In this document: positions 249 to 44,829 of the stretch, in pieces
Layout of the letters: the number at the start of each line of letters is the position of its first letter
How positions within the stretch are numbered: position 1 is the stretch's first letter
IMG/VR virus record: IMGVR_UViG_3300035201_000148
Coordinates: 1 to 49,980 of that record
Source of the DNA: a virus
DNA length: 49,980 nucleotides
Direction: 5' to 3' (one strand)
Program-made: the position numbers and the translations under genes
Notes under the pieces: generated by a model
What the model saw: the letters and a program-made list of their open reading frames with translations, nothing else
Database searches by the model: none
Told to the model about the DNA's origin: nothing

Positions 249-460
249 GTGGTAAAGAGTTTGAAGATTGGACACTTGCTCAGGACCAAGCTAGGCAATT
301 GTTGGAAGATGGTATAGAATATGTAAGTATATTGCAATGGGATGATGAACGAAAGACTTGGGGTTTACTTCAAGAATTAAATTTAGAACGTGGTATTATT
401 GGAAAGCAATTCAACACTCACGTTCTTGCACCTTATTATGTTAGACTCAGAGGATTATGA
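227..460 (+). CDS. Small conserved-type protein between clamp and clamp loader
   Basis: A 77-residue protein starting MGSQYKVGGKEFEDW. I chose ATG 227 over the in-frame ATG at 173 because GAGG lies at 218-221, five bases before it, and because the upstream stretch would overlap the membrane protein deeply. The N-terminal half looks like a compact alpha/beta fold (GKEFEDWTLAQDQARQLLEDG); the rest has no recognisable motif. Its TGA overlaps the gp44 ATG, so it is probably co-translated with the clamp loader. Function unknown. Confidence 0.65.
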   Translation: MGSQYKVGGKEFEDWTLAQDQARQLLEDGIEYVSILQWDDERKTWGLLQELNLERGIIGKQFNTHVLAPYYVRLRGL

Positions 461-1398
461 GTGACTTTATTTGGGTTGAAAAATACCGACCCAAGACAAT
501 TGATGAATGCATTCTCCCAGAGAATATTAAGAAAACCTTTAGTGATTTTCTAAATAGGGGTGAAATACCGAATATGTTGCTTGCTGGACCTCCTGGTGTT
601 GGTAAGACTACGGTAGCAAAAGCACTCTGTAATCAATTGGGGGTAGACTACTATGTCATTAATGGATCGGATGAGGGAAGGTTTCTTGATACAGTTCGGA
701 ATAACGCCAAGAACTTTGCGTCTACAGTATCTCTTAGCAGCGAGTCAAAGCATAAAGTCATCATCATCGACGAGGCAGACAATACCACTGCCGACGTACA
801 ACTCCTCCTTAGAGCGTCTATTGAGGAGTTCACCAACAATTGTAGATTCATCTTCACCTGCAACTATAAAAATAAAATCATCGAACCCCTCCACTCGCGG
901 TGTGCTGTGGTCGAGTTCGGCATCAAAGGTAAAGAGAAACCTCAAATTCAAGCTGAGTTCTTCAAACGACTTAATACCATCTTGGACACAGAACGGATCG
1001 AATCCGATAAGAAAGTCCTCATTGAACTCATCAGCAAACACTTTCCAGATTGGAGAAGAATCTTAAATGAGTGTCAGAGATACTCTGTTGGTGGTAAAAT
1101 AGATAGTGGTATACTTGCAACTTTTTCGGATGTAGCGGTAAATGATCTCATTAAAAACCTCAAAGAAAAGAACTTTAAGGAAGTTCGTAAGTGGTGTGTC
1201 AGTAACTTGGATAATGATCCTGCTGTTCTATTACGTCGCATTTACGATTCTCTTTCAGATTCCTTGGTTCCTACATCCATTCCTGCTGCTGTTTTGGTTA
1301 TTGCTAAGTACCAATACCAAATTGCCTTCGTAGCAGATCAAGAAATTAATTTACTTGCTTGCTTAACTGAAATCATGGTGGAGTGTCAATTTAAATGA
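457..1398 (+). CDS. 44: Clamp loader large subunit gp44 (AAA+ ATPase)
   Basis: A 313-residue AAA+ ATPase that, with gp62, loads the gp45 clamp at primer-template junctions using ATP. Walker A is GPPGVGKTT at about 44-52, Walker B IIIDEAD at 102-108, and the clamp-loader SRC motif lies at 147-149. The N-terminal WVEKYRPKTIDE is also typical of RFC/gp44 proteins, and the length matches T4 gp44 (319). The start overlaps the upstream stop as ATGA. Codons from about 700 to 1030 are visibly richer in C-ending triplets than the rest of the gene. Unlike T4, gp62 does not follow directly; about 3.1 kb of other genes separate the two subunits. Confidence 0.97.
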   Translation: MSDFIWVEKYRPKTIDECILPENIKKTFSDFLNRGEIPNMLLAGPPGVGKTTVAKALCNQLGVDYYVINGSDEGRFLDTVRNNAKNFASTVSLSSESKHKVIIIDEADNTTADVQLLLRASIEEFTNNCRFIFTCNYKNKIIEPLHSRCAVVEFGIKGKEKPQIQAEFFKRLNTILDTERIESDKKVLIELISKHFPDWRRILNECQRYSVGGKIDSGILATFSDVAVNDLIKNLKEKNFKEVRKWCVSNLDNDPAVLLRRIYDSLSDSLVPTSIPAAVLVIAKYQYQIAFVADQEINLLACLTEIMVECQFK

Positions 1399-1598: not shown

Positions 1599-1760
1599 AT
1601 GAGAACTCAAAGAAAAGAAAACTATTATTATGTTTTCTGGACTATAGCAATGATTGCTTTTATAGTTCCACAAGTCTTTACTGCATATGCATATATGAGT
1701 ATTAAAGATCTTCTTGATAAACCAATAAAGGTTGAGTATATAAATCAGGAGACAATGTAA
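1599..1760 (+). CDS. Small membrane protein, possible paralogue of 2423-2674
   Basis: A 53-residue protein starting [18 protein letters not shown] and ending at TAA 1758-1760, which overlaps the pyrE start as TAATG. A basic N-terminus precedes a hydrophobic span (about residues 9-33, [20 protein letters not shown]), followed by [12 protein letters not shown]. The same plan, YY-V/I-FW then a span then a D/LDxPI motif, recurs in the protein at 2423-2674, so the two look like diverged copies flanking pyrE. Function unknown. Confidence 0.6.
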
Positions 1761-2296
1761 TGAAAGATGAATTATTAGAACTTCTAAAGAAGTATGCATA
1801 TAAGAAAGGAGAGTTTACTCTTTCTTCTGGTAAGACAAGTGAGCATTATGTTAACTGTAAACCAGTAACATTATCTGGGAGGGGATTAACCCTTGCTAGT
1901 TTGTTGATGCTAAAAGAAGTTGAGACTAAAGTAGTAGCAGGACTTACTCTTGGTGCTGATCCTTTAGTTGCAGGAGTTTCTTTAGTATCTGCATTAGATA
2001 GTAGAATGGTTAATGGTTTGATAGTTCGTAAAGAACCTAAAGGTCATGGTACAGAAGCATGGATAGAAGGACCATTACCACCAGAAGGAACAAAGATAAC
2101 TGTATTAGAAGATGTTGTTACTACAGGTGGTTCTGCTATTAAGGCAGTAGAGAAATTGCGTGATGCTGGATATGTGGTAGAAAGAGTAGTGTCCATTGTA
2201 GATAGACAAGAAGGTGGTAAGGATGCTATGATGGAAAAGAAATTAGAACTACGTAGTTTATTTGAATTACCAGAATTGGTAGGAAAATTTTTATGA
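1760..2296 (+). CDS. pyrE: Orotate phosphoribosyltransferase
   Basis: A 178-residue type I phosphoribosyltransferase expected to join orotate to PRPP, giving OMP in de novo pyrimidine synthesis. The PRPP-binding motif [11 protein letters not shown] sits at about 115-125. The flexible catalytic loop RKEPKGHG is at 90-97, and the N-terminal [11 protein letters not shown] matches the OPRT signature. It is slightly shorter than typical bacterial PyrE (about 210), mostly by trimming at the ends. In a phage it fits boosting nucleotide supply along with purM, nrdAB and mazG in this window. It is packed between two small membrane-protein genes. Confidence 0.9.
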
Positions 2297-2436
2297 CTGA
2301 TGACAACAAGGTAATCTACAGGGCAACAGCAAATCCTAATGCAACTAACAGCGAGTTAGATGCTAAAATCATTATAGACCATACAAAAAAAGATGGAAAC
2401 CGTGACGTTGAGAGAGAAGAAAATGAAAAAGTCTAA
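2293..2436 (+). CDS. Small acidic polar protein
   Basis: A 47-residue hydrophilic protein starting [16 protein letters not shown]. The ATG at 2293 overlaps the pyrE stop (ATGA) and its own TAA at 2434-2436 lies 14 bases inside the next gene. No membrane segment or known motif is visible. The tight coupling on both sides is the main reason to call it a gene; the length makes this uncertain. Confidence 0.45.
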
Positions 2437-2674
2437 ATTAGAAAAACAAAGACATCAAGTTAAATCTAGATGGTATTATATCTTTTGGGGAACATGTACA
2501 GTAGCAGTATGTGCTGGACAGATTCTTGTTGGAAATGGATTCCGTAGAATGGCAGAAAGTTTTGATAGAGTACTAGATGCTCCTATAAGAATGGATATTG
2601 GTATCCCTGGTCCTAGACATAGAATGGTAATTCCTGAGATGTGGGATCCTGAAGATCCTATGGTTATTCGATGA
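2423..2674 (+). CDS. Small membrane protein with short globular tail
   Basis: An 83-residue protein from ATG 2423 ([14 protein letters not shown]); an upstream in-frame ATG at 2393 is less likely because it would run further into the preceding gene. A very basic N-terminus leads into a span near residues 15-32 (WYYIFWGTCTVAVCAGQILV), then FRRMAESFDRVLDAPIRMDIG and a Pro-rich tail. It shares its layout with the protein at 1599-1760. This is a type often seen in T4-like cyanophages; function unknown. Its stop overlaps the next start (ATGA). Confidence 0.65.
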   Translation: MKKSKLEKQRHQVKSRWYYIFWGTCTVAVCAGQILVGNGFRRMAESFDRVLDAPIRMDIGIPGPRHRMVIPEMWDPEDPMVIR

Positions 2675-3795
2675 TCATAAGTGAGGCAGATGCTTTATGG
2701 GCTGCTGACGAATTTATTGATTATTTTAGAAATTTTACATCAATAGAAGATTATCTTCGATATGTGAAGAAGCAGTTGGTTGCTCAGACAAGTCAACTTT
2801 TTCCTTTGGAGGATGAATTCTTTAATGAAGATATTCCTCCAAATGAGATGGAGTTTGATGTTAAATTTGTTGGAGATAGATTTGAGCATTCCATACCACA
2901 GGATCATTATAATAATCTTTTAGCAGCAGTATCTTCTCATAATAATGAAAGTAATATACCAGGAAGAGAATTACGTTGGATAGTATATGAAAAGAGATCT
3001 CAGAAGGTTGTGGGGTTTGTTCGTTTTGGTTCTCCTACAATTAATTCTAAACCAAGGAATATATGGTTAGGTAAAGCACCTGACCTTTCTGTGTTTAATC
3101 GTCATGCTGCAATGGGATTTGTTATTGTCCCATCTCAACCTTTTGGATATAATTATCTTGGTGGTAAACTTCTTGCATTGATGTGTGTTTCTCATTTTGC
3201 AAGAGAGACTTTGAATGAAGTATTCCAGAAAGATATTGCCTTATTTGAAACTACTTCATTGTATGGTTCTACGACCTCTGCGTCACAGTATGATGGACTA
3301 AAACCTTTCTTTAGGTATAAAGGTTTAACTGAAAGTAAGTTCCTTCCCCTGCTCCATGAAGAGGTCTTTCATAGACTTCATAATAGGTTTACTATATTAA
3401 ATAATAACAAACCATTAACTCTTAATACTGCTTCATCTAAAAAGATGAAAAGACAAACTAAGATGATTGCTTGGACTAAAAATTCTTTAAAGGAATATGG
3501 TCAGGAAGAGAAACTTAAAGAGTTTAATGATGTGATTAAGATGGCATTTAATCTTACACAGAAGAAGAGATATTATATTTCTGATTATGGGTACTCTAAT
3601 GTTAAAGAAGTTATTAATGGTGACCATTATCAATTATGTCCTGGACCTAATTGGGATAAGTTTCATTTAGATAATATTATTTCTTGGTGGAAGAAAAAAG
3701 CAACAAAGAGATATGATAAATTAAAGCAAGAAGGTCGTTTCAGGGATAGGGTCGAACTTTGGACTAATGACGATGATATACAGATCATAAGATAA
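2671..3795 (+). CDS. Large hypothetical protein, DUF4338/DruA-like pattern
   Basis: A 374-residue protein. Residues about 100-225 carry a pattern I associate with DUF4338, the core domain of DruA from Druantia anti-phage systems. It has VVGFVRFGSP, then PRNIWLG, an N-R-H...GFVIVPSQPF stretch, LLALM, and a late FETTSLY...YDGLKPFFRYKGL block. DruA proteins show G-F-x-x-F-G-S-P, PRD-x-WIGW, N-N-x-RFLILPW, L-ETFVD and G-T-C-Y-x-A-N-W in the same order. The match is by eye and distant. A basic C-terminal region (KKMKRQTKMIAWTKNS) could bind nucleic acid. It sits in an early replication segment next to an oxygenase. Confidence 0.55.
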   Translation: MIISEADALWAADEFIDYFRNFTSIEDYLRYVKKQLVAQTSQLFPLEDEFFNEDIPPNEMEFDVKFVGDRFEHSIPQDHYNNLLAAVSSHNNESNIPGRELRWIVYEKRSQKVVGFVRFGSPTINSKPRNIWLGKAPDLSVFNRHAAMGFVIVPSQPFGYNYLGGKLLALMCVSHFARETLNEVFQKDIALFETTSLYGSTTSASQYDGLKPFFRYKGLTESKFLPLLHEEVFHRLHNRFTILNNNKPLTLNTASSKKMKRQTKMIAWTKNSLKEYGQEEKLKEFNDVIKMAFNLTQKKRYYISDYGYSNVKEVINGDHYQLCPGPNWDKFHLDNIISWWKKKATKRYDKLKQEGRFRDRVELWTNDDDIQIIR

Positions 3796-4368
3796 ATGTT
3801 AGAAAATCCCCGCAATGTAGAATTTGATATCTATGTGATGGATGATGTTTTTCCTGAGGATGAACATGTAGAATTTTTGAAACTAATTAGAGAACTTAAT
3901 GGTGATTGGAAACCACGTATTGATGATTTGGATGTGTTTTGGTTTGCATGGAAAGAAGAACATCCAGGTAGAAAATATTTAATGCATCTATTAAATATTG
4001 TGGGTAAACATTTTGATTTATCTTCTGCTATTGGGTATGAAACTTGGATTCGTATGAATACTAGACCTTGCGGTTGGCATCGTGATCATGATGATAGATT
4101 GGAAATGACCACGGGAGAATTAAAATATCCAATGTGTACTACAGTATATTACCCTTATGTTGGGGATGATCTGAAAGATGGTAGACTGTTATTTGAAAAT
4201 GGAACTGTACTTTTACCTAAGACAAATCGAATGGCATTTTTTGGACCAGGTTATTATCATAATGTTGAGGAGTTTACTGGTGAAAGGATTTCTATCTTAC
4301 TTAATCCTTGGAATGAAACTCTTTGTCAAACAGAATGTCATGATCCTTGGAGGAGGTATATGGTATGA
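3796..4368 (+). CDS. 2OG-Fe(II) dioxygenase
   Basis: A 190-residue predicted 2-oxoglutarate/iron(II)-dependent oxygenase. The metal-binding HxD pair is in GWHRDHDD (His95, Asp97), the distal His in GYYHNVEE (about His155), and the 2OG-anchoring Arg in GERISILLNPW (about Arg164). The jelly-roll spacing of these three sites is right for the prolyl 4-hydroxylase-like group. Such enzymes are common in cyanomyoviruses, but their substrates are generally not known. The gene begins directly after the preceding stop and ends in overlap with the next start. Confidence 0.85.
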   Translation: MLENPRNVEFDIYVMDDVFPEDEHVEFLKLIRELNGDWKPRIDDLDVFWFAWKEEHPGRKYLMHLLNIVGKHFDLSSAIGYETWIRMNTRPCGWHRDHDDRLEMTTGELKYPMCTTVYYPYVGDDLKDGRLLFENGTVLLPKTNRMAFFGPGYYHNVEEFTGERISILLNPWNETLCQTECHDPWRRYMV

Positions 4369-4565
4369 GTTGGAAGAAGTATCGTAAATTAACGTTAGAA
4401 GAATGGGGTATACTATCAGTGTTATACCTTGAATACTTTGTACAAAAGTTTCTATGTGGGATATACTTTACTTACCAGAAATTGAGTTACTGGAACTTCA
4501 ATAGAAACTTGGATGAAAGAAATAGAAAACTTGCTGAACAAACACCATTATCAAAAAATGACTGA
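4365..4565 (+). CDS. Small protein upstream of gp62
   Basis: A 66-residue protein from ATG 4365 (MSWKKYRKLTLEEWG). A strong GGAGGAGG at 4349-4356 precedes it by eight bases, which decides the start over the upstream in-frame TTG. The centre (ILSVLYLEYFVQKFLCGIYFTY) is aromatic and hydrophobic and may be a membrane-associated helix; the C-terminal third is polar. The stop overlaps the chosen gp62 start by eight bases. Family unknown. Confidence 0.65.
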   Translation: MSWKKYRKLTLEEWGILSVLYLEYFVQKFLCGIYFTYQKLSYWNFNRNLDERNRKLAEQTPLSKND

Positions 4566-4941
4566 ACTTAAAGACTGGTTGAATTCTATCAACTTTACAA
4601 AGCAAGATTTGCGAGAGGAAGATCCTGATTCTATAAAGGATTATGCTCCTTATATTATCAATCGTTGTTTATCAGGTCATCTTGATTGCATTATGTTTGC
4701 GAATGAGATGAACAAGTATTCGTTCTTAGATAAGGATATGCAATATTCTTTTTATCTAAATACTTTGAGGAAAAAGAAGAGATTCAGTCCCTGGCTCCGT
4801 AAGGATAAAGTCACAGATCTTGAAATCATCAAACAATACTATGGTTATAGTAACGAAAAAGCATCACAAGCTTTGAAAATATTAACCCCTGAACAAATTA
4901 AATTTATTAAACAACGACTTGATACTGGAGGAAGGAAATGA
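4558..4941 (+). CDS. 62: Clamp loader small subunit gp62
   Basis: A 127-residue protein starting MTELKDWLNSINFTK. It is recognised as the cyanophage form of gp62, which joins gp44 to make the clamp loader. Supporting features are YIINRCLSGHLDCIMFANEMN, the KKKRFSPWLRKDK block and the position directly before RegA. It is shorter than T4 gp62 (187). An in-frame ATG at 4513 would add 15 residues but would overlap the preceding gene by more than 50 bases; neither start has a strong ribosome-binding site. The stop overlaps the regA start. Confidence 0.88.
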   Translation: MTELKDWLNSINFTKQDLREEDPDSIKDYAPYIINRCLSGHLDCIMFANEMNKYSFLDKDMQYSFYLNTLRKKKRFSPWLRKDKVTDLEIIKQYYGYSNEKASQALKILTPEQIKFIKQRLDTGGRK

Positions 4942-5378
4942 CGGCTTCGACGGTTGAACCTACTGTAGAGTGGGCCCAAGATAAGATGCTGGAGGTTGTG
5001 CTGAATGAACCAGATGATTTCTTAAAAGTTCGTGAGACTTTAACAAGAATTGGTGTAGCATCCAGAAAGGAAAAGAAACTCTATCAGTCCTGCCATATAC
5101 TGCATAAGCAGGGAAGATATTATATTGTTCACTTTAAGGAACTCTTCGCACTTGATGGGAAACACGCTAACCTTACTGCTAACGATGTTCAGCGTAGGAA
5201 TCGTATTGCTCGTCTCCTTGCTGATTGGGGTTTAATTTCCATAGTTAAGGAAGATTCTGTTGCAGACATTGCACCCCTTAATCAAATTAAAGTATTAGCA
5301 TATAAAGATAAAGGTGACTGGATACTAGAACAGAAGTATAATATAGGAAAGAAGGGGAAGACCCAAGAAACTGAGTGA
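4938..5378 (+). CDS. regA: RegA translational repressor
   Basis: A 146-residue RegA. The blocks DFLKVRETLTRIGVA, LYQSCHILHKQG and YYIVHFKELFALDG follow T4 RegA (122 residues) almost position by position. RegA binds the start regions of early mRNAs, including its own, and blocks ribosome entry. A strong GGAGGAAGG at 4926-4934 favours ATG 4938, which gives an N-terminal extension of 16 residues relative to T4. Met17 (4986, MLEVVLNEPDD) lines up with the T4 start and remains an alternative. There is also a C-terminal tail (GKKGKTQETE). Confidence 0.97.
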   Translation: MTASTVEPTVEWAQDKMLEVVLNEPDDFLKVRETLTRIGVASRKEKKLYQSCHILHKQGRYYIVHFKELFALDGKHANLTANDVQRRNRIARLLADWGLISIVKEDSVADIAPLNQIKVLAYKDKGDWILEQKYNIGKKGKTQETE

Positions 5379-6082
5379 AAAAATTTATTTTTGATGTTGA
5401 CGGAACTCTGACTCCTAGTAGATGTCAGATAAATTCCGAGTTTTTATTATTCATGATGTTCTTTGCAACACGGAATGATGTTTATCTTGTTACTGGTAGT
5501 GACAGGGATAAGACATTAGAACAGGTTGGTGTGGATTTATGTAATGCATCTCAAAGAGTTTATAATTGTTCTGGTTCTGATGCATATGAGCAGGATGAGA
5601 ATGTCTATAGAGATGAATGGACTTTACCTTGGGATGTGGAAAGGTTTTTGTATGATGAATTAGATTATAGTCAATTTATTATGCGTAATGGAAATCATAT
5701 TGAAAGGAGACCTGGTGGGGTTAATTTTAGTATTCTAGGTAGAGCAAAGGATCCTTTTCTTGGTAGAAAGGAATATATGGAATGGGATAAGGAAACTAAT
5801 GAGAGAGCAGATATAGCAGACAGACTTAGAAGTAATTATCCTGGTTTATCTGTTGCTCTTGGTGGTCAAACTGGTATTGATATTGGACCTTGGGGTAGTG
5901 ATAAGAGTCAAATATTGAGAGATTTTTCTGAGAATGATGAACTATATTTCTTTGGCGATAGGATGGAACCAGGTGGAAATGATCATTCTTTAGGGGAAGC
6001 AGTAAAAAATATGGGCGGTTATACGTACCATGTTAAAAATTGGGAAGAGACCCGAACCATATTAGAGGGTATTCACGAATGA
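5375..6082 (+). CDS. Eukaryote-type phosphomannomutase (HAD superfamily)
   Basis: A 235-residue HAD-superfamily protein that follows the eukaryotic phosphomannomutase (PMM1/PMM2) plan. The nucleophile motif FDVDGTLT (Asp7, Asp9) is at the N-terminus, with VTGSDRDKTLEQVG, RNGNHIERRPGGVNFSILGR, FGDRMEPGGND and a GGQTGIDIGPWGSDKSQ block. Expected reaction: mannose-6-phosphate to mannose-1-phosphate, the step before GDP-mannose; members of the family also interconvert glucose-1- and glucose-6-phosphate. The start is GTG, overlapping the regA stop. It probably serves the GDP-sugar genes downstream, although it lies about 29 kb away from them. Confidence 0.88.
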   Translation: MKKFIFDVDGTLTPSRCQINSEFLLFMMFFATRNDVYLVTGSDRDKTLEQVGVDLCNASQRVYNCSGSDAYEQDENVYRDEWTLPWDVERFLYDELDYSQFIMRNGNHIERRPGGVNFSILGRAKDPFLGRKEYMEWDKETNERADIADRLRSNYPGLSVALGGQTGIDIGPWGSDKSQILRDFSENDELYFFGDRMEPGGNDHSLGEAVKNMGGYTYHVKNWEETRTILEGIHE

Positions 6083-11358: not shown

Positions 11359-11918
11359 AGAATATAAAAATAATAAAGAAGGATATTAATGTTTCTAAGA
11401 TTAAGGCACAGTTAGATAAGAATGATGGTGATTGGGGATCTCAACAGAAACTTAAGAACGTTAAGATAAAAGATCCTCATGAATATATTACTACAGTTGA
11501 TGTGCTTCAACTGGTAATAGGTGGTATTAATAAACCAGGAGAACATGTAGGTGATACTGAGATATGTAATAAGACTCCTGCATATGAACATCATAGTGCT
11601 GTTAGGAAATATCTGAGAAAGACTTTTCCAGATATACGTCGTTGTGGATTTATGTCTCTACCTGTAGAAGAGATAGTGGGTGCTCATATTGATGAGGGGA
11701 CATATTATTTGGATAAGGATAGATACCATTTATCCATAACAGGTCAGTACCAATATTTTGTAGGAAATGAAAGTGTTATAGTTGACCCAGGGACATTATT
11801 GTGGTTTAATAATAAGATGCCTCATGGGACAGTTAACACTGGTGATGTTCCTAGAATTATCTTTGTGTTTGATGTTCCCCATTCTCCAAACAATCCGCAG
11901 CATAGTATAGATGGATAG
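11355..11918 (+). CDS. Aspartyl/asparaginyl hydroxylase-like oxygenase
   Basis: A 187-residue double-stranded beta-helix protein resembling the Asp/Asn beta-hydroxylase branch of 2OG-Fe(II) enzymes. Candidate metal ligands are in [11 protein letters not shown] (His and Asp) and [20 protein letters not shown] (distal His and the Arg that would hold 2OG). [14 protein letters not shown] and [11 protein letters not shown] form the barrel core. It is unrelated in detail to the oxygenase at 3796-4368. Substrate unknown; it lies between uvsX and gp41, overlapping both by a few bases. Confidence 0.75.
11782..11810 (+). promoter_or_regulatory. Weak sigma70-like promoter candidate before gp41
   Basis: TTGACC at 11782-11787 and TTTAAT at 11805-11810 are 17 bases apart, about 100 bases before the gp41 start and inside the oxygenase gene. 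Each box has one mismatch to consensus. It could strengthen helicase expression, but the location within coding sequence keeps confidence low. Confidence 0.3.
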
Positions 11919-13281
11919 CGTTGAGTTTCTGATTCTTAGGAATCTCTTACATAATGAGGAGTATGTTCGTAAGGTTCTTCCTTTTGTTAAGGCAGATTAC
12001 TTTGAGGATACTAATCAAAGGGTAGTATTTGAGGAGATATCTAGTTTCGTTCAGGAATATAATGAACCTGCTACCAAAGAAATCCTTTGTATAGAAACAG
12101 AAAAGCGTCAAGATATTAATGATAGTTCTTTTAAAGATATTACTACATTAATTAATAGTTTAGAGGATCAACCATCTGAGTTTGATTGGTTAGTTGATAC
12201 TACTGAGAAATGGTGTCGAGATCGTGCTATATATTTGGCACTGATGGAATCGATTCAGTTAGCTGATGGAAAAGGGGAGCAGAAAGGAAGGGATGCTATT
12301 CCTAGCATTTTGTCTGATGCTTTGGCTGTTTCTTTCGATAATCATATAGGACATGACTACTTACAAGACTACGAAGAAAGGTATGAATCGTACCACAGGA
12401 AGGAAGACAAGATTGAGTTTGATCTCGAATTCTTCAATAAAGTTACGAAAGGCGGTTTACCGAATAAGACTCTCAACATTGCTCTTGCTGGGACAGGTGT
12501 TGGAAAATCTCTATTCATGTGTCATGTGGCAAGCTCAACTTTGCTCCAGGGAAAGAACGTCCTTTACATCACTCTCGAAATGGCAGAGGAAAAGATTGCG
12601 GAAAGGATCGATGCTAATTTACTTAATGTCGCAATACAAGATATAACTGATCTTCCAAAGCAGATGTATGAGACTAAGGTTACAAACCTTTCTCAGAAAA
12701 CTCAAGGACAATTAATTATTAAAGAATATCCTACTGCATCAGCACATAGTGGTCATTTTAAATCTTTGTTAAATGAACTTGCACTTAAGAAATCTTTTAA
12801 ACCAGATATTATATTCATAGATTACTTAAATATATGTGCTTCCAGTAGATACCGTGGAAACGCTAATGTCAATTCTTACTCGTATATCAAAGCGATTGCA
12901 GAAGAACTCCGTGGTCTTGCGGTTGAAGCAAATGTTCCAATCGTTTCCGCTACTCAAACCACTCGTTCTGGTTTTGCTAGTAGCGATGTTGACCTTACAG
13001 ATACCAGTGAGTCTTTTGGGCTTCCAGCTACCGCTGATCTTATGTTTGCTCTTATTAGTACTGAGGAATTGGAGAGTTTAAATCAAATATTGGTTAAGCA
13101 ATTAAAGAATCGTTATAATGATCCTACTATGAATAAGAGATTTGTGGTGGGTATTGATAGAGCAAAGATGAGGTTATATGACTGTGAACAGAGTGCTCAG
13201 GAAGATATTGTTGACAATGGGCAAGAAGAAGAGTATACTGAAAAGAAAGCAAAGAAATCATTCTCCGAGTTTAAATTTTAA
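11911..13281 (+). CDS. 41: Replicative DNA helicase gp41 (DnaB-like)
   Basis: A 456-residue hexameric 5'-3' helicase of the replication fork, partner of the gp61 primase. The N-terminal helical domain (VEFLILRNLLHNEEYVRKVLPFVKADYF) precedes a RecA-like core with Walker A AGTGVGKS near 193-200, LYITLEMAEEKIAERID, the Walker B region IIFIDYLN and SATQTTRSGF. Length and order match T4 gp41 (475). The acidic/basic C-tail EEEYTEKKAKKSFSEF is typical. It starts in overlap with the oxygenase gene. A strong sigma70-like promoter lies within its 3' end. Confidence 0.96.
   Translation: MDSVEFLILRNLLHNEEYVRKVLPFVKADYFEDTNQRVVFEEISSFVQEYNEPATKEILCIETEKRQDINDSSFKDITTLINSLEDQPSEFDWLVDTTEKWCRDRAIYLALMESIQLADGKGEQKGRDAIPSILSDALAVSFDNHIGHDYLQDYEERYESYHRKEDKIEFDLEFFNKVTKGGLPNKTLNIALAGTGVGKSLFMCHVASSTLLQGKNVLYITLEMAEEKIAERIDANLLNVAIQDITDLPKQMYETKVTNLSQKTQGQLIIKEYPTASAHSGHFKSLLNELALKKSFKPDIIFIDYLNICASSRYRGNANVNSYSYIKAIAEELRGLAVEANVPIVSATQTTRSGFASSDVDLTDTSESFGLPATADLMFALISTEELESLNQILVKQLKNRYNDPTMNKRFVVGIDRAKMRLYDCEQSAQEDIVDNGQEEEYTEKKAKKSFSEFKF
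13211..13239 (+). promoter_or_regulatory. Strong sigma70-like early promoter
   Basis: TTGACA at 13211-13216 and TATACT at 13234-13239 are exactly 17 bases apart: a perfect -35 and a one-mismatch -10. It lies in the last 75 bases of gp41, so transcription would begin near 13246 and serve the small gene at 13284 and mazG. Predicted host RNA polymerase promoter. Confidence 0.65.
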
Positions 13282-13933: not shown

Positions 13934-14371
13934 ATGAACTTTTGGCAAAAAGAAACCAGTGGTGTATTAGGAGCAGTTCTTATTGCTGCTACATCTGCAT
14001 GTACTCCTGCTGTAGCACATCATCAGCAATCTGGTTATTCTGAAACCAATACTTGCTATAGAGAGGAATATAGAGAAGAGTATGTACCAGGAACAGCAGA
14101 TTCTCCTGGTTATATAAAGTCTTGGACTGATACGATTGAGTATCCTTGTAGTAGAACTCGGATTATTAGTACACCAGAGAATACAACCAGAACTAGAAAA
14201 TATGAAGAGTATGAGGTGGATGATAATGATTGTTCAGATGGTTCAGTTGCTGGTGCATTACTAGGTGGTGGACTTGCTGGATTTGGTAGTAGAGGAAAGG
14301 ATAGATGGTGGGCAATTCCTGGTGGTGCTGTTTTAGGTTCGATGATTGGTTGCCAAATTGATGGTGGTTAA
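13934..14371 (+). CDS. Putative lipoprotein with glycine-zipper segment
   Basis: A 145-residue envelope-type protein. An N-terminal hydrophobic stretch (GVLGAVLIAATSAC) ends in a Cys that could be a lipobox or a signal-peptide region. The middle is Tyr/Glu/Arg-rich with two more Cys. The C-terminus has a glycine-rich helical pair (GSVAGALLGGGLAGFGSRG and WWAIPGGAVLGSMIGCQ), like glycine-zipper membrane domains. An AGGAG six bases ahead supports the ATG. Expressed from the promoter at 13884, it could modify the host envelope early in infection; function unproven. The stop overlaps the purM start. Confidence 0.65.
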   Translation: MNFWQKETSGVLGAVLIAATSACTPAVAHHQQSGYSETNTCYREEYREEYVPGTADSPGYIKSWTDTIEYPCSRTRIISTPENTTRTRKYEEYEVDDNDCSDGSVAGALLGGGLAGFGSRGKDRWWAIPGGAVLGSMIGCQIDGG

Positions 14372-15321
14372 TGGACTACAAATCTTCGGGAGTTGATATA
14401 GAAGCAGGGAATGCTTTTGTAGAAAGACTCAAAGAGAAAGCACCTGCTATTGGTGGATTTGGTGGAATGTTTAGTGTACCATCAGGATACGAGAAACCTA
14501 TATTAGTTTCTGGTACTGATGGTGTAGGTACTAAGATTAACATATGTAGAGTTGCTAATGATTATACTACTATTGGTATAGATCTCGTTGCTATGTGTGT
14601 TAATGATGTAATTACTTGTGGTGCTAAACCATTATACTTTTTAGATTATGTTTCCACCCAAAAGATAGATGATAATGTTGCAGATATTATGGTGGGTATT
14701 CTTAAGGGATGTGAGTTAGCAGGAGTAGAATTGATAGGTGGAGAGACTGCTGAACATGGTCGCTTTTCTAATGATTATGATATAGCTGGATTTTGTACTG
14801 GTATTGTAGAAGAAGGTGAGATATTAGATGGTAGAATGATTAAACCAGGTGATGTTGTTATTGGTATAGAGAGTAGTGGTCTTCATAGTAATGGATATAG
14901 TTTGATTAATGATATGTTATGGAGACATAAGATTTCTTGGAAGGATAGTTATATTGGAGAGGGAACACCAGAACTACTTACTCCCACTAGAATCTATGCT
15001 CCTTTGGTAAAAGAATTATTGGATGAGTTTCCTATTCTTGGTATGGCACATATAACTGGTGGTGGTATTTTTGAAAATCTATTAAGGTGTTTACCTAAAG
15101 GATTAACTGCAGATATTGACTATAATGTTTGGGCATTACCAAAGATATTCAGTAAGGTTATGTGTGCTGGTGAGATACCAGAAGAGGAGATGAAGAGGGT
15201 ATTTAATCTTGGTATTGGATATTGTTTAGTAGTTCCTGAAGAAGCAGCATCAGAAGTTCAATTTCATATAGAACGTTTTGGATATAATTCGTGGGTTATT
15301 GGTAATATAAATAAGATATAG
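14371..15321 (+). CDS. purM: Phosphoribosylformylglycinamidine cyclo-ligase (AIR synthetase)
   Basis: A 316-residue PurM that would close the imidazole ring of AIR in purine synthesis using ATP. Key blocks are the N-terminal YKSSGVDIEAGN, the ATP-binding LVSGTDGVGTK (about 46-55), GIDLVAMCVNDVITCGAKPLYFLDY, IGGETAEHG, and SGLHSNGYSLI. It is slightly shorter than bacterial PurM (about 345) at the C-terminus. PurM has been reported in many cyanomyoviruses. It is expressed with the lipoprotein-like gene; a late promoter for the next gene lies within its final codons. Confidence 0.96.
   Translation: MDYKSSGVDIEAGNAFVERLKEKAPAIGGFGGMFSVPSGYEKPILVSGTDGVGTKINICRVANDYTTIGIDLVAMCVNDVITCGAKPLYFLDYVSTQKIDDNVADIMVGILKGCELAGVELIGGETAEHGRFSNDYDIAGFCTGIVEEGEILDGRMIKPGDVVIGIESSGLHSNGYSLINDMLWRHKISWKDSYIGEGTPELLTPTRIYAPLVKELLDEFPILGMAHITGGGIFENLLRCLPKGLTADIDYNVWALPKIFSKVMCAGEIPEEEMKRVFNLGIGYCLVVPEEAASEVQFHIERFGYNSWVIGNINKI
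15306..15313 (+). promoter_or_regulatory. T4-type late promoter
   Basis: A perfect TATAAATA box, overlapping the end of purM and 29 bases before the ATG of the first gene of the late island. This matches the T4 late promoter consensus, which is read with gp55 and the gp45 clamp. Confidence 0.7.
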
Positions 15322-34884: not shown

Positions 34885-35979
34885 ATGAGGGACTATAAAG
34901 GAACTGCATTGGTATTGGGTGCAGGTGGTTTCATAGGCAGTCATATGGTAAAGAGACTGCGTAAAGAAGGTTATTGGGTACGGGGTGTTGATCTGAAGTC
35001 CCCTGAATTTTCCAAGACAGAAGCAAATGAATTTATACATGGCGACTTGCGAGATGTAGATTTCGTTCGCCGTGTTTTAAAGTTTAAAGGTGAGCAAGGT
35101 AATTTCTATAATGAAATTCCATATAAGATGGAAGAACCTTTTGATTACATCTATCAATTTGCTGCTGATATGGGTGGTGCAGGTTTCGTTTTCACTGGTG
35201 AGAACGATGCAGATATCATGCATAATTCTGTAAGTATTAATTTAAATGTACTTGAGGAGCAACGTAAGTTTAATGAAGTAAAAGGTGTAAATAATACGAG
35301 AATATTTTACTCTGGTTCAGCATGTATGTACCCAGAGCATAACCAACTTGATCCTGATAATCCTGACTGTCGTGAAGAATCAGCATACCCAGCAAACCCA
35401 GACTCCGAGTACGGATGGGAGAAACTCTTTTCAGAACGTTTGTATCTTGCTTACAACCGCAATCACAATATCCCTGTGCGTATTGCCAGGTATCATAATA
35501 TCTTCGGACCAGAAGGAACTTGGCAAGGAGGAAGAGAAAAAGCACCTGCAGCAATTTGCAGGAAAGTGGCATATGCTCAAAACGGAGATGAAATCGAAGT
35601 TTGGGGTGACGGAAAGCAGACCCGTTCCTTCCTCTTTATCGACGAGTGCATCGAAGCTACTTATCGAATGATGAATTCTGATTTCTTAGGACCAGTTAAT
35701 ATTGGTTCTGAGGAGATGGTTACTATTAATGAGTTGGTAGATATTGCTGCTAAGGTTGCTAAGAAAAAAATATATAAGAATCATATTGATGGTCCTCTTG
35801 GTGTTCGTGGTCGTAACTCTAACAATGATCTTGTAAGAGAAAAGTTGGGATGGGATTATTCTCAGACATTAGAAGAGGGTATTGCTAAAACTTATGATTG
35901 GATTAAGTGGCAAGTAGTTAAAGAACCTTTCGAAGCAGAACCTACTATGCTAGAATACGAATTGACAGCAGCAGGTTAA
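34885..35979 (+). CDS. gme: GDP-mannose 3,5-epimerase (SDR)
   Basis: A 364-residue extended SDR that closely follows plant-type GDP-mannose 3,5-epimerase, which turns GDP-D-mannose into GDP-L-galactose (with GDP-L-gulose). The NAD site is LVLGAGGFIGSH (about 9-20). The active-site Cys lies in SGSACMYP (Cys147) and the catalytic YGWEK at 176-180. FHNI/YHNIFGPEGTWQGGREKAP, VWGDGKQTRSFLFIDEC and GVRGRNSNND complete the family signature. It is a little shorter than the plant enzyme (377). It is the first gene of the glycan cassette. Codons at about 35380-35670 are C-rich. Confidence 0.92.
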   Translation: MRDYKGTALVLGAGGFIGSHMVKRLRKEGYWVRGVDLKSPEFSKTEANEFIHGDLRDVDFVRRVLKFKGEQGNFYNEIPYKMEEPFDYIYQFAADMGGAGFVFTGENDADIMHNSVSINLNVLEEQRKFNEVKGVNNTRIFYSGSACMYPEHNQLDPDNPDCREESAYPANPDSEYGWEKLFSERLYLAYNRNHNIPVRIARYHNIFGPEGTWQGGREKAPAAICRKVAYAQNGDEIEVWGDGKQTRSFLFIDECIEATYRMMNSDFLGPVNIGSEEMVTINELVDIAAKVAKKKIYKNHIDGPLGVRGRNSNNDLVREKLGWDYSQTLEEGIAKTYDWIKWQVVKEPFEAEPTMLEYELTAAG

Positions 35980-35982
35980 ATT

Positions 35983-36831
35983 ATGAGAGTGACTATATTA
36001 GGCTCCAGTGGACAAATCGGAGCATACTTGACGGAATACCTTCGTCATCTTGGACATGAGGTAATAGAGTTTGATAAGAACTTTGATGAGAAGCATGACA
36101 TGACTGTCATACCTAACATCAAACTTCATGGTGCTATTATGAATTCTGATTTTGTATACTTCCTTGCATTTGATGTAGGTGGTTCTCATTATCTGAAGAA
36201 GTATCAGCATACATTTAAGTTCCTTGATAATAATGCAAGGATGATGGTTAATGCTTTTGAATATATTCAGAAGTATAATAAACCATTTGTATTCGCATCA
36301 TCTCAGATGAGTAATATGAGTTACTCACCTTACGGTGTAATGAAGCGGGTAGGGGAACTATATACTAAGTCTTTGAACGGATTGATAGTAAAGTTTTGGA
36401 ATGTTTATGGGATTGAACATGATATGGAGAAAGCCCATGTCATTACAGATTTCATAAAGAAAGGTTTTGAGACAGGTACTATCGATATGATGACTGATGG
36501 TACGGAAGAAAGGGAATTTTTATACGCTGAAGATTGCTGTGAAGCGTTGTATACGGTCATGCAAGAGTATGATCGTTTCACTTCTGACGATGAGCTTCAT
36601 ATTACTTCTGGTGTTAGTACAAGTATTCTGGAGATTGCATCACAAATTCAGTCCTTATTTAAAGAGATTGATCGGGAGGTTACTATTGCTCCCGCTGAGT
36701 CTAAGGATGAGGTACAGAAGGATGCCCGTAATGTATCGGATCCGTACATCAAGACGTTCTGGAGACCGACCACTACGATAACTGAAGGTATCACTAAAGT
36801 ATTCAATGAAATGAAAAAGAACTATGACTAA
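35983..36831 (+). CDS. NAD-dependent sugar epimerase/dehydratase (SDR)
   Basis: A 282-residue extended SDR. The N-terminal nucleotide site is TILGSSGQIGAYLTEYL; catalytic residues are in SSQMSNMSYSPYGVMKRVGELY (Tyr and Lys of YxxxK), and VKFWNVYG and EREFLYAEDCCEAL are typical. It probably acts on a nucleotide sugar such as the GME product, but substrate and exact reaction are unknown. It lies four bases after GME and overlaps the next gene by eight. Confidence 0.85.
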   Translation: MRVTILGSSGQIGAYLTEYLRHLGHEVIEFDKNFDEKHDMTVIPNIKLHGAIMNSDFVYFLAFDVGGSHYLKKYQHTFKFLDNNARMMVNAFEYIQKYNKPFVFASSQMSNMSYSPYGVMKRVGELYTKSLNGLIVKFWNVYGIEHDMEKAHVITDFIKKGFETGTIDMMTDGTEEREFLYAEDCCEALYTVMQEYDRFTSDDELHITSGVSTSILEIASQIQSLFKEIDREVTIAPAESKDEVQKDARNVSDPYIKTFWRPTTTITEGITKVFNEMKKNYD

Positions 36832-37588
36832 CTTGACTCCTCTCAGAAATTTTATTCAGGATCCTGCTTGTGACTTGGGTAATAATGCATGGAAACTTCT
36901 TGACTTAGTAAAGACTATGAAGAACAAGAGGTTTTTAGACCTTGGTGTTCGTCTTGGTGCATCTTCTGCTGTTATGTCGGTAGGAGCAGATGAAAGTAAC
37001 AATCAAGTTTGTGGTTGTGATTTAGATTATGATGGTTTCTTTAAGAATGGTCGTAGGTTTGTTAGTGAAAACTATACTTGCTATCAGGCAGATAGTGTAA
37101 CACTTGGTAAGAACTGGGATGAAGATCCATTTGATATTATTTTTGTTGATACTATTCATACAAGAGAACAAGTACTAGCAGAACTTTATTTCTGGTCTGC
37201 TCATTTAAATGAAGGTGGATATTTTATATTCCATGATTCACATTGGGATCATACAACTAAGGGTGATACGATTGGTGGTAAGGAATGGAGAAGAGTTGAT
37301 GAAGCAATCACTGACTTCTTTAATCTTCCAGAGAATGTGATGAAGTTGGATGAGTATGAGGATAATGATATTCTATTGAATCATTCTCCTGGTAGTTTTG
37401 GTATGACTTTTATAAAGGTAAAGAAACTTGCAGCAATAGAAAGATTTAAAGAGGGTATAGATTGGAAGGAAGTATTTGATATTAGGAACGAGTTAAATGA
37501 TATGCATTTCAATAAAGACAATCCCAAATTTGTGGATTGGCATCAAGACATCCCTAACATACAGAATGAATTAGTTATTAATCCATGA
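36824..37588 (+). CDS. Class I methyltransferase (methyltransf_24-like)
   Basis: A 254-residue Rossmann-fold SAM-dependent methyltransferase. Motif I is RFLDLGVRLGASSAVMS; motif II/III includes VCGCDLDYDGF, and the post-motif is DIIFVDTIHTREQVLAEL with FHDSHWDH. These DTIH and HDSH residues recall methyltransferases that act on sugars or related small molecules. Within the cassette it would methylate a sugar hydroxyl. It shares its class with the gene at 42618-43211. Confidence 0.8.
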   Translation: MTNLTPLRNFIQDPACDLGNNAWKLLDLVKTMKNKRFLDLGVRLGASSAVMSVGADESNNQVCGCDLDYDGFFKNGRRFVSENYTCYQADSVTLGKNWDEDPFDIIFVDTIHTREQVLAELYFWSAHLNEGGYFIFHDSHWDHTTKGDTIGGKEWRRVDEAITDFFNLPENVMKLDEYEDNDILLNHSPGSFGMTFIKVKKLAAIERFKEGIDWKEVFDIRNELNDMHFNKDNPKFVDWHQDIPNIQNELVINP

Positions 37589-38409
37589 CATTTTCGGTAT
37601 CCCATTGGTCGGGTCGCTTAGGAAATAACATACAGCAGATTTCTAATTGTATAATGGCTGCTGAAAAATATAAATGTACTTTCCGTCAAAAGTTAGACCA
37701 TGATATTATTCCAAAGTTTGAAGTACACTTTGAAGGTCTTCTTGCTTCTGATTTCACAGCGAATGCTAGGTATTATTCTTGGGAACCCTTAGTTCATTGT
37801 GAGAAGGGTTGTTATGAAGGTGAGAATGAAACTGGATTAGGTGTGGAGCATATCTATAGAAATATGCATAAGGTTTGTAGAGAACATATTGGACCAAACT
37901 TATTACTTCCAAAGAAAGATATAATTGGTGATGATACGATTGTGATGCATCTTAGGAGTGGTGATAATTATCATAGGATATTCAAACCACCTACTAACTA
38001 TGTCCCCAATCCACTGATATTTTATTTGGAATTGATAGATTTATATGATAAGGCAATTGTTATTACAGAACCAGATAGAGAGAATCCTATTGTACATGAA
38101 CTAGAGAAACTTGATAAGGTTACAATTCAATCTTCTACAGTAGCAGATGACTTTGCTACATTAATGAATGCAGAGAATGTAGCATTGTCTGGTGTAGGAA
38201 CTTTTGCAATGGCTGCAGCACTTTGTTCTACTACAATTAAGAATCTATATACTACTGATTTATTATTGACAGAACACTTAAATTATACTATGCTTTATAA
38301 TACAGATGTGGAAGTTAATGTAATGGAACTGGATAATTATATTCCAGTTTTCCCCTGTAGTTGGAAGAATACAGAGGAGCAACGTAAATTTATTCTTGAA
38401 TATAGATGA
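37585..38409 (+). CDS. Fucosyltransferase-like glycosyltransferase (GT11-type)
   Basis: A 274-residue enzyme with GT11/O-fucosyltransferase features: the N-terminal GRLGNNIQQISN donor loop, the MHLRSGDNY motif that binds the GDP part, and the late GVGTFAMAAALCS. It would transfer fucose or a similar sugar from a GDP-linked donor. It is more diverged than the copies at 44830 and 47286. Overlaps neighbours by ATGA on both sides. Confidence 0.75.
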   Translation: MTFSVSHWSGRLGNNIQQISNCIMAAEKYKCTFRQKLDHDIIPKFEVHFEGLLASDFTANARYYSWEPLVHCEKGCYEGENETGLGVEHIYRNMHKVCREHIGPNLLLPKKDIIGDDTIVMHLRSGDNYHRIFKPPTNYVPNPLIFYLELIDLYDKAIVITEPDRENPIVHELEKLDKVTIQSSTVADDFATLMNAENVALSGVGTFAMAAALCSTTIKNLYTTDLLLTEHLNYTMLYNTDVEVNVMELDNYIPVFPCSWKNTEEQRKFILEYR

Positions 38410-39398
38410 AAATATTTGTAACAGGATGTGCTGGATTACTTGGCGCAAATTATACTAGGCATTTAATTTCCAGTGGTCACCATGTAATTGGTATTGATAA
38501 TCTCTCTGGAGGTTATAAAGCATTTGTTGCTAAAGGTGAGAACTTTGAGTTTGTAAAATTAAACTTAGAGAAGAGAAAGAAAGTAGAAGCATTATTTGAT
38601 GAACACCGACCAGATGTTCTGCTTCACTTTGCTGCGTATGCTGCTGAAGGTTTATCTCCTTTCATTCGTAATTTTAATTATAGGAATAATCTTCTTTGTT
38701 CTGCTAACTTAATTAATCCTTGTATTAAGTATAAGACTAAGATGATATTTACATCTAGTATGGCAGTTTATGGTGGGCAACAAACACCTTTCACAGAAGA
38801 TAAACAACCACAACCAATAGATCCATATGGTATGGCAAAGTATGCTGTAGAATGTGATCTAAAGATGGCGGAGACACAGTTTGGATTGAGGTATAACATT
38901 GTACGTCCACATAATGTTCTGGGATTGTATCAAAATATCTGGGATAGATATAGAAATGTAATTGGTATTTTCATCCGTAAGACTCTTAACGGTCAACCTA
39001 TTCTTGTCTATGGTGATGGAGAACAGACTCGTGCTTTCTCAGACATTCGTTATTATATGGAACCATTTGATATTCTTCTTAATGAATTTGATGGAGAGAT
39101 TTTTAATATTGGTGCAGATAAGTTCTTTACTCTTAATGAAGTTGCTGAAACAGTTCAGGCAATAGGTAAGAAGTATGGGTACGATGTTCCTATTGAGCAC
39201 GGTCCTCCAAGGCACGAAGTTAAACACGCATACTGCGATCATACTAAGGCAAAGAACTTGCTTAAATTCCAGGACAATACTAAACTGGAAGAGTTGATTG
39301 AAAATATGTTTGTGTGGGCAATGAAGCAACCTAACCGTAAGGTGAAGGATATGGAATATGAAATTACTGAAGGCATTTACGATTACTGGAAGAACTAA
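38406..39398 (+). CDS. UDP-glucose 4-epimerase-like SDR
   Basis: A 330-residue extended SDR: FVTGCAGLLGANYTRHL for NAD, GIDNLSGGY, LHFAAYAAEG, the catalytic SSMAVYG and YGMAKYAVE (Tyr, Lys), and VRPHNVLG. These resemble GalE and related sugar 4-epimerases. The exact donor sugar is unknown. A possible sigma70-like pair (TTGACA 38266, TATGCT 38289) lies upstream but is weak. Confidence 0.85.
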   Translation: MKIFVTGCAGLLGANYTRHLISSGHHVIGIDNLSGGYKAFVAKGENFEFVKLNLEKRKKVEALFDEHRPDVLLHFAAYAAEGLSPFIRNFNYRNNLLCSANLINPCIKYKTKMIFTSSMAVYGGQQTPFTEDKQPQPIDPYGMAKYAVECDLKMAETQFGLRYNIVRPHNVLGLYQNIWDRYRNVIGIFIRKTLNGQPILVYGDGEQTRAFSDIRYYMEPFDILLNEFDGEIFNIGADKFFTLNEVAETVQAIGKKYGYDVPIEHGPPRHEVKHAYCDHTKAKNLLKFQDNTKLEELIENMFVWAMKQPNRKVKDMEYEITEGIYDYWKN

Positions 39399-39400
39399 CT

Positions 39401-40081
39401 ATGTCAGAATGCGATTGGCCTAATTGTCCCCGATATTTTAAGGGTGACTATGAGAAACTGAAGACCAAGTTTACTGGTGCTGAAGACATTGAGAATAACT
39501 GGTCACAGTCAATGCAAGATATGTTTGTATTGACTATGCTTGATGGTAAAAAGAAAGGTGTTTATGTAGAAGTTGGTGCAGATCAACCAAGAGTAATTAG
39601 TAATACGTATCTATTAGAGACTGAGTTTGATTGGGCAGGTGTTTCATTTGAACTGGATGGTAATAAGGTATCTTTCTTTAATACTATGAGGAGAAATAAA
39701 TGTATTTGTGATGATGCTACAGAGTTTGATTATAAGTTTCTTTTTGGTGAAAGGAATTATCCAAAGCAGATTGATTATCTTCAATTGGATATTGATCCAG
39801 CAGAAGGGACTCTTGCAGCATTAAAGAAAATGCCTTTAGATGACTATAGATTTTCTGTCATTACATATGAGACTGATGTTTATAGTTCTGGAGCAGATAT
39901 TCAAGATGAACAGATACATATCTTAGAGTCAAAGGGTTATCAATTGGTTGCAAAGAATGTTAAGTGTGAGGGAAATCCATACGAAGATTGGTGGATTGAT
40001 CCTGCAATTGTGCCTGAAGAAAGGTGGAAACCTTACTATACACGTATAGGTGCTGAATCTAATGAGGTGATACTATCATGA
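39401..40081 (+). CDS. FkbM-type methyltransferase
   Basis: A 226-residue SAM methyltransferase of the FkbM kind. Motif I is GVYVEVGADQPRVISNTYLLE, followed by WAGVSFELDGNKVSFF, and the acidic post-motif is IDYLQLDIDPAEG. FkbM enzymes commonly O-methylate polyketides and bacterial glycans. Here its place supports sugar methylation. It begins two bases after the preceding gene. Confidence 0.85.
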   Translation: MSECDWPNCPRYFKGDYEKLKTKFTGAEDIENNWSQSMQDMFVLTMLDGKKKGVYVEVGADQPRVISNTYLLETEFDWAGVSFELDGNKVSFFNTMRRNKCICDDATEFDYKFLFGERNYPKQIDYLQLDIDPAEGTLAALKKMPLDDYRFSVITYETDVYSSGADIQDEQIHILESKGYQLVAKNVKCEGNPYEDWWIDPAIVPEERWKPYYTRIGAESNEVILS

Positions 40082-40836
40082 GTTGGACATTACAAGATTC
40101 TGCTGTAACTCCATATTTAAGTGCTTGTAGAGCAGCAGCACAAGGATCTGATTTCTTTAAAAATTTTAAGAGTCATCCTGCATATCGACATGTATTAGAA
40201 CATGTATCAATGGAAGAAGGTCATCAATATCTGGATGAGATTGAGATAGATTATAAAGATAAGTTAGATGAGATTAAAGAAAATGATTTATACGGCACTC
40301 CAATTCAGTGTAGTTATGATGGTATTGGTATGATATCACCAACAACTGTAAGGTATCTAAAGAATACATCTGATATTATTAACAAGTTTGGAACATCATT
40401 TAATTCTATTGTAGAAATTGGTGGAGGATATGGTGGTCTTTGTAAGGTTATGAGTACCTTTGTTGACTTTGAACAGTACCTCTTACTAGATTTGGAAGAG
40501 TGTAATATGTTATCAAGGAAGTATCTTTCACTCTTTGATCTTCCTACTATGTCTTATCAAGCAGAAGAGATAGTTGATGTTGAGGATAATTTTGATTTAT
40601 TAATTAGCAACTATGCATTGTCAGAATGTAATAGGGAAACTCAGATGATGTATATTGAAAGGTTTGTGAAGAAGAGTGATAAGTTCTATCTAATGCATAA
40701 CAACTTTCACGCAGACAATGGTAATATGTCTTATGAAGAGTTCATTGATATTATGTCTGACACTCACGATATTGAATACTATGGTGAGCACGGTGTTCCT
40801 GAAAATCCTAAAGTAATGTTTGGTACTATTAAATGA
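40078..40836 (+). CDS. Putative sugar O-methyltransferase
   Basis: A 252-residue protein with a SAM-binding core SIVEIGGGYGGLCKV, LLLDLEECNMLSRKYL and NYALSECNRETQMMYI. The combination SPTTVRYLKN...IVEIGGGYGG is typical of a family annotated as sugar O-methyltransferases in polysaccharide clusters. It overlaps its neighbours by ATGA. Third methyltransferase in the cassette; substrate unknown. Confidence 0.78.
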   Translation: MSWTLQDSAVTPYLSACRAAAQGSDFFKNFKSHPAYRHVLEHVSMEEGHQYLDEIEIDYKDKLDEIKENDLYGTPIQCSYDGIGMISPTTVRYLKNTSDIINKFGTSFNSIVEIGGGYGGLCKVMSTFVDFEQYLLLDLEECNMLSRKYLSLFDLPTMSYQAEEIVDVEDNFDLLISNYALSECNRETQMMYIERFVKKSDKFYLMHNNFHADNGNMSYEEFIDIMSDTHDIEYYGEHGVPENPKVMFGTIK

Positions 40837-42625: not shown

Positions 42626-43211
42626 ATTTATTGAGAAGGCACTGCAGGGTGATGGTGATTCTGATCGTCACCTTGTTTCAATCTTTGCTATAGCACTTGC
42701 ATCTAGAGGAAAGACGTATGTTGAATTAGGAGTCAGAGAAGGACATACTAGTGAACCTTTACATCAAGCAGCAACATTAAATCTTGGTAAGTTGTGGTCT
42801 GTTGATGTTAATGAACCAACAGAATATAGACCACCGAATAATACTCTTCATTATGAATTTAAAAAGAGTGATAGTATAAAGTTTCTTGAAAACTGGCCTA
42901 AAGATAATAAGATGGATGTGGTTTTTGTTGATGACTGGCATTCATATTCTCATGTTAAGAAGCAATTAGAATTACTTGATCAATGTGTAGGACCTAGTAG
43001 TATTATTCTTTTACATGATCTGATGTATGGGAACACAGATCCTTTTTATCATGCAGATCTTGCACACGGTGGACCTCAGTGGGATGCTGGTGGTCCTTAT
43101 CGTGCCGTTGCAGAATTGAATCCACAGTTCTGGGAATGGTCAACACTACCTTGGAATAATGGACTAACTATATTAAGAAAAAAGTATAGTAACAAATATC
43201 ATAGGAGGTAA
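42618..43211 (+). CDS. Class I methyltransferase
   Basis: A 197-residue SAM methyltransferase from ATG 42618 (MDKFIEKALQGDGDSD). The start is supported by AGGTG just upstream and by minimal overlap with the previous gene. Motif I is TYVELGVREGHTSEPL, with WSVDVNEP and VVFVDDWHSYSHVKKQL and LLHDLMYG. The DDWHSY and HDL residues match the class of the gene at 36824. Fourth methyltransferase of the cassette. Confidence 0.8.
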   Translation: MDKFIEKALQGDGDSDRHLVSIFAIALASRGKTYVELGVREGHTSEPLHQAATLNLGKLWSVDVNEPTEYRPPNNTLHYEFKKSDSIKFLENWPKDNKMDVVFVDDWHSYSHVKKQLELLDQCVGPSSIILLHDLMYGNTDPFYHADLAHGGPQWDAGGPYRAVAELNPQFWEWSTLPWNNGLTILRKKYSNKYHRR

Positions 43212-43212
43212 T

Positions 43213-44827: not shown

Positions 44828-44829
44828 TT

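What the first reader, a model, noticed from the sequence alone, without database searches (positions are those of the whole stretch)
2671..3795. Possible DruA-like (DUF4338) protein carried by a phage
The order GFVRFGSP, PRNIWLG, GFVIVPSQPF, LLALM, FETTSLY, then a YDGLKPFFRYKGL end parallels the core of DruA, best known from the anti-phage Druantia system. In a phage replication region such a protein could be an anti-competitor factor, a decoy or a DNA-processing enzyme in its own right.
Basis: inference. Interest (0 to 1): 0.6.

Follow-up and report, generated by a model that had tools for sequence, protein, structure and literature searches.

The report
DruA-family acetyltransferase-fold gene in cyanophage
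A marine T4-like phage carries, inside its DNA-replication operon and without the Druantia partner genes that were tested for, a relative of DruA, a protein best known from a bacterial anti-phage system; it has an acetyltransferase-like fold and most likely works as a stand-alone enzyme for the phage, perhaps by chemically modifying its DNA.

Summary
The ORF at 2671-3795 (374 aa) is a DruA/DUF4338-family protein: it passes Pfam's DruA cut-off (31.9 vs 27 bits), orthologs in 11 phage genomes all match the DruA model (ten above the cut-off), and profile comparison with bacterial Druantia type I DruA gives 98.6% probability over 238 columns. AlphaFold2 models of both show the same order of helices and strands. 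Foldseek puts both nearest GNAT acetyltransferases (weak scores, consistent family), as a 2024 paper said of DUF4338. The gene usually sits between clamp-loader genes gp44 and gp62, is conserved to its last residues (IIR), and is under purifying selection (median dN/dS 0.11). DruB and DruE were not found in 11 phage genomes or the window, so it is not a Druantia system. Phage proteins form their own group, far from bacterial DruA, which speaks against a recent decoy copy. Best reading: a stand-alone phage enzyme acting in DNA replication or protection, possibly a Mom-like base modifier; that last step is inference, and no sequence link to Mom was found. DruA-like proteins of six Synechococcus phages, S-PRM1 among them (it carries an ortholog), were reported in 2026 (Phold), so novelty is modest.

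The parts
2671..3795 (+). CDS of the DruA/DUF4338-family protein, 374 aa plus stop
2947..3261 (+). Stretch matching Pfam DruA PF14236 (residues 93-197)
3133..3186 (+). Residues 155-172: loop and helix SQPFGYNYLGGKLLALMC after strand 146-154, at the place of the GNAT cofactor-binding loop; G164 G165 K166 conserved with bacterial DruA (cofactor role inferred)
3250..3300 (+). Residues 194-210 TTSLYGSTTSASQYDGL: conserved loop, low-confidence in the model, with invariant T194, S196, G199, Y207 (active-site role inferred)
3667..3732 (+). Residues 333-354: basic C-terminal helix (region 330-360 has predicted pI 10.45); DNA contact inferred
3784..3792 (+). C-terminal residues IIR, the same in all 378 sequences of this type
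2393..2674 (+). Upstream 93-aa ORF (phrog_2000, unknown function); its stop overlaps the DruA-like start (ATGA)
457..1398 (+). gp44 clamp loader subunit, upstream context
4513..4941 (+). gp62 clamp loader subunit, downstream context

Best explanation
The gene encodes a stand-alone phage enzyme of the DruA (DUF4338) branch of the GNAT acyltransferase superfamily. Shown by computation: family membership, a GNAT-like predicted fold shared with bacterial DruA, residues conserved across both groups (R129, K166, T194, S196, S205, Y207 and several glycines), purifying selection, a replication-operon position, and no DruB or DruE in the phages. Inferred: the loop 155-172 (..YNYLGGKLL..) holds an acyl-CoA-like cofactor; the loop T194-Y207 closes the active site, with Y207 near where GNATs often carry a general acid; the basic core and C-terminal helix bring it to DNA. 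The most likely job is to modify replicating phage DNA, or a protein bound to it, so that the phage genome escapes host nucleases, a role like that of Mom in phage Mu. I hold identity and fold at about 0.9, 'catalytic and acting in phage DNA metabolism' at about 0.6, and 'modifies the phage's own DNA' at about 0.35; the number given is for the whole statement.
For: DruA family. Fold: models with pLDDT 88.7 and 85.1 and the same order of elements; Foldseek PDB matches nearly all GNAT acetyltransferases for the phage model and mostly acetyltransferases for DruA; DUF4338 described as GNAT in PMC10853773. Conserved residues. Replication operon. Purifying selection. No DruE or DruB. Basic regions. 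Fold-level match to Mom of a Salmonella phage, E 5.9e-3, probability 1.0.
Against: No Foldseek PDB match reaches E 0.001 (best 9.8e-3), so the GNAT assignment rests on consistency rather than on a single strong hit. No substrate or cofactor has been shown. Mom shows no sequence relation. D130 of the bacterial RDxxIGW motif is N in this clade and the bacterial GHFH and GPNWR motifs are missing, so the chemistry may differ or be lost. The gene is accessory: 31 phage records against 518 with a close gp44.
Confidence: 0.4

Rival explanations
1. A protein acyltransferase: it acetylates a host or phage protein (clamp, polymerase, nuclease) for host takeover or replisome control, rather than DNA.
For: GNAT-type matches in the PDB are mostly protein or small-molecule acetyltransferases; the gene lies among replisome genes.
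Against: No partner protein is indicated by the data; the basic C-terminal region suits nucleic acid at least as well.
Confidence: 0.3
2. A non-catalytic DNA- or protein-binding member that keeps the fold but has lost the chemistry, for example a replication accessory factor.
For: D130N and loss of the bacterial GHFH and GPNWR motifs; position between clamp-loader genes.
Against: R129, K166, T194, S196 and Y207 are invariant in both phage groups and bacterial DruA.
Confidence: 0.17
3. A decoy or inhibitor that mimics host DruA and blocks Druantia type I.
For: Homology to DruA over most of the protein.
Against: Identity to bacterial DruA is only about 16-18% and the phage proteins form their own group on long branches, which is not expected of a copy tracking a host protein; conserved putative active-site residues. 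Whether marine hosts carry Druantia I was not tested.
Confidence: 0.07
4. A Mom-family DNA modification enzyme, as one phage record labels its ortholog ('methylcarbamoylase mom').
For: Annotation in PQ898602; Foldseek match to a Salmonella phage Mom, E 5.9e-3.
Against: hhalign to a seven-sequence Mom alignment: probability 0.3%, E 0.21; Pfam's separate Mom family PF25680 is not among the matches at E up to 10; Mom's invariant HYS and ELxR motifs are absent. Similar function is not excluded.
Confidence: 0.03

Closest known systems
DruA-like proteins of Synechococcus phages (Phold paper, PMC12774648; example S-PRM1)
   Same: Same family: S-PRM1 carries an ortholog, 50% identical, in the same operon slot
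   Different: The paper reports the structural similarity only; in the passages read it gives no operon context, residue comparison or mechanism
DruA of Druantia type I (PF14236, DUF4338; PADLOC PDLC00002)
   Same: Homologous over most of the length, same order of predicted elements, shared G98, G115, R129, P157, G165, K166, T194, S196, Y207, G218
   Different: About 16-18% identity, D130N, no GHFH or GPNWR motifs, no DruB or DruE, lies in a phage replication operon
Pelagibacter phage Mosig DUF4338 protein and the second HTVC008M copy
   Same: Sister phage subfamily, same core motifs
   Different: Keeps RDEYIGW, ends in VGR, lies elsewhere in the genome near 2OG oxygenase and MazG genes
GNAT acetyltransferases
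   Same: Predicted fold and strand/helix order
   Different: No PDB match below E 0.001; no Pfam GNAT family match; cofactor not shown
Mom of phage Mu (PF25680)
   Same: Phage-encoded, fold-level similarity
   Different: No detectable sequence or motif relation

Membership tests
DruA / DUF4338 protein family (PF14236) | Score above the curated Pfam cut-off | tested here: met
   31.9 against 27 bits; ten of 11 phage genomes above the cut-off
DruA / DUF4338 protein family (PF14236) | Profile similarity to DruA of Druantia loci over most of the length | tested here: met
   hhalign 98.6%, E 1.2e-15, 238 columns; one source locus confirmed as DruA-B-C-D-E by PADLOC
DruA / DUF4338 protein family (PF14236) | Full set of bacterial DruA motifs (RDxxIGW, GGKL, TTS..G, SxYxRL, GHFH, GPNWR) | tested here: inconclusive
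   GGKL and TTS..G kept; SxYxRL partly; RD is RN; GHFH and GPNWR missing
Druantia type I defence system | Presence of DruE helicase | tested here: not met
   No match in 11 phage genomes or the window; control genome matches
Druantia type I defence system | Presence of DruB | tested here: not met
   No match in 11 phage genomes or the window; control genome matches
Druantia type I defence system | Presence of DruC and DruD | not tested
   Not searched in the phage genomes; five large window ORFs gave no DruC or DruD match in PADLOC
GNAT acyltransferase superfamily | GNAT fold | tested here: met
   Predicted strand/helix order and consistent Foldseek matches, though each weak; agrees with PMC10853773
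GNAT acyltransferase superfamily | Binding of acyl-CoA and acyl transfer | not testable with these tools
   Needs an experiment
Mom DNA-modification family (PF25680) | Profile match and Mom motifs | tested here: not met

The most novel reading that the evidence does not exclude
The phage DruA group is a new class of DNA-modifying acyltransferase in marine T4-like phages, and its chemistry would reveal what DruA does inside Druantia type I.
Probability: 0.2. Interest if true: 0.75.

Novelty: new member of a known kind. Interest (0 to 1): 0.36.

Why it matters
The biochemical role of DruA in Druantia type I was not described in the papers read here. A stand-alone, strongly conserved phage relative, present in phages of cultured Synechococcus and Pelagibacter, gives a simpler way to find its substrate. 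It also shows that a defence-gene label can mislead in phage genomes: a family search alone would list this as a Druantia gene although DruB and DruE are absent.

Tried and rejected
Mom membership: no sequence support. Phage-borne Druantia: DruE and DruB absent. Solved relatives by sequence: none meaningful. Steady pairing with the adjacent 2OG oxygenase-like gene as a two-step modification pathway: rejected as a general rule, 13 of 377 loci. NCBIfam: nothing. CK_II_beta hit (E 0.51): noise. ThsB hit of the ORF 11911-13281: rejected, the protein is a DnaB-type helicase. Bacterial-type DruA in viral contigs: only two loci; not pursued beyond listing the ORFs of L606. Whether marine hosts carry Druantia I could not be searched with the handles at hand. 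Promoter scan: matches little above shuffles (34 vs 27.7), not used.

Full report
Observation. Its start overlaps the stop of the upstream ORF (ATGA) and its TAA stop is followed at once by the ATG of the next ORF, so it is part of a tightly packed operon. The window is a 49,980-base virus record with replication genes of T4-like cyanophages: gp44, gp62, regA, gp43, a UvsX-like recombinase and a DnaB-type helicase.

Family. Pfam DruA (PF14236) matches residues 93-197 with 31.9 bits, above its cut-off of 27; PADLOC DruA also matches, E 1.4e-4; the closest phage family is phrog_19197, of unknown function. Since one hit just above a cut-off can mislead, I checked relatives: 11 phage genomes with a related gene all match the model, ten above the cut-off, and Pelagibacter phage Mosig scores 80 bits over model positions 60-296. 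I then collected bacterial DruA from genomes, confirmed one locus as a DruA-B-C-D-E operon with PADLOC, aligned 36 proteins and compared profiles: 98.6% probability, E 1.2e-15, 238 columns.

Fold. AlphaFold2 with 62 sequences gives pLDDT 88.7, pTM 0.84. The model of bacterial DruA (pLDDT 85.1) has the same succession of elements from the first core strand (62-67; 92-96 in DruA) to the long C-terminal helix. Foldseek against the PDB returns almost only GNAT-type acetyltransferases for the phage model and mostly acetyltransferases for DruA. Individual scores are weak (best E 9.8e-3 and 1.2e-2), so the GNAT reading rests on consistency and on PMC10853773, which describes DUF4338 as a GNAT domain. 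The library of viral models adds giant-virus proteins of unknown function (Faunusvirus, E 4.3e-15) and a Salmonella phage Mom (E 5.9e-3).

Conserved residues. Across 51 phage, 11 Mosig-type and 36 bacterial sequences, G98, G115, R129, P157, G165, K166, T194, S196, G199, Y207 and G218 are invariant. Differences matter too: D130 of the bacterial RDxxIGW motif is N in the window's clade, and the bacterial GHFH and GPNWR motifs are missing. All 378 sequences of the window's type end in IIR and all 80 Mosig-type in VGR, which suggests a functional C-terminus. dN/dS against close relatives has a median of 0.11 over 71 pairs, many with high dS.

Context and distribution. In 377 ortholog loci the next matched gene downstream is gp62 in 314, and upstream it is gp44 or the 93-aa ORF in most. 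The abutting 2OG oxygenase-like gene is the downstream neighbour in only 13. In the phage collection 31 records carry a relative against 518 with a close gp44, so it is an accessory gene. DruE and DruB are absent from all 11 phage genomes and the window, while the control genome gave both. In a tree, the two phage subfamilies, the bacterial and the archaeal sequences each fall on one side of a branch; HTVC008M carries one of each phage type.

Interpretation. This is a stand-alone phage member of the DruA family with a GNAT-like fold. An enzyme of DNA metabolism or protection fits best. Modification of the phage's own DNA, as Mom does for Mu (general knowledge), is the mechanism I favour, but it is inference: Mom shows no sequence relation and no substrate is known. 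A protein substrate is the main rival. A decoy is unlikely given the distance from bacterial DruA.

Prior work. The Phold paper (PMC12774648) reports DruA-like proteins in six Synechococcus phages by structure, with S-PRM1 as example; S-PRM1 carries an ortholog of this gene. A review (PMC12904381) lists Druantia among systems using DNA methylation and cites a phage factor, Druad1, that promotes methylation to evade type I Druantia; it does not assign a role to DruA in the passages read. The general finding is therefore known; what is added here is sequence-level support, operon slot, constraint, residue comparison and the absence of two partner genes.

Noticed in passing
window 34885-48910: A long run of ORFs for nucleotide-sugar epimerases or dehydratases, a methyltransferase and glycosyltransferases (GT17 and two GT11); a surface-sugar or glycan cluster.
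   Followed up: partly
window 3796-4368: 190-aa protein with H-x-D and H...R residues as in 2OG-Fe(II) oxygenases (WHRDHDD, YHNVEEFTGERIS), abutting the DruA-like gene; the only family match is weak, phrog_274.
   Followed up: partly
L083 5001-6122 and L483 4974-6113: Pelagibacter phage HTVC008M carries two DruA-family genes, one of each phage subfamily.
   Followed up: partly
viral model library A0A3G4ZXG3, A0A5K0UAJ3, A0A3G4ZRA1: Uncharacterised giant-virus proteins (Faunusvirus, Yasminevirus, Dasosvirus) are the best structural matches, E 4.3e-15 to 2.0e-8: DruA-like domains may occur in viruses of eukaryotes.
   Followed up: no
L081 4983-6104: The S-SCSM2R ortholog is annotated 'methylcarbamoylase mom', a label that the sequence tests here do not support.
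   Followed up: yes
window 1760-2296, 5375-6082, 14371-15321: Metabolic genes around the replication region: phosphoribosyltransferase, phosphomannomutase-like hydrolase and a phosphoribosylaminoimidazole synthetase.
   Followed up: no
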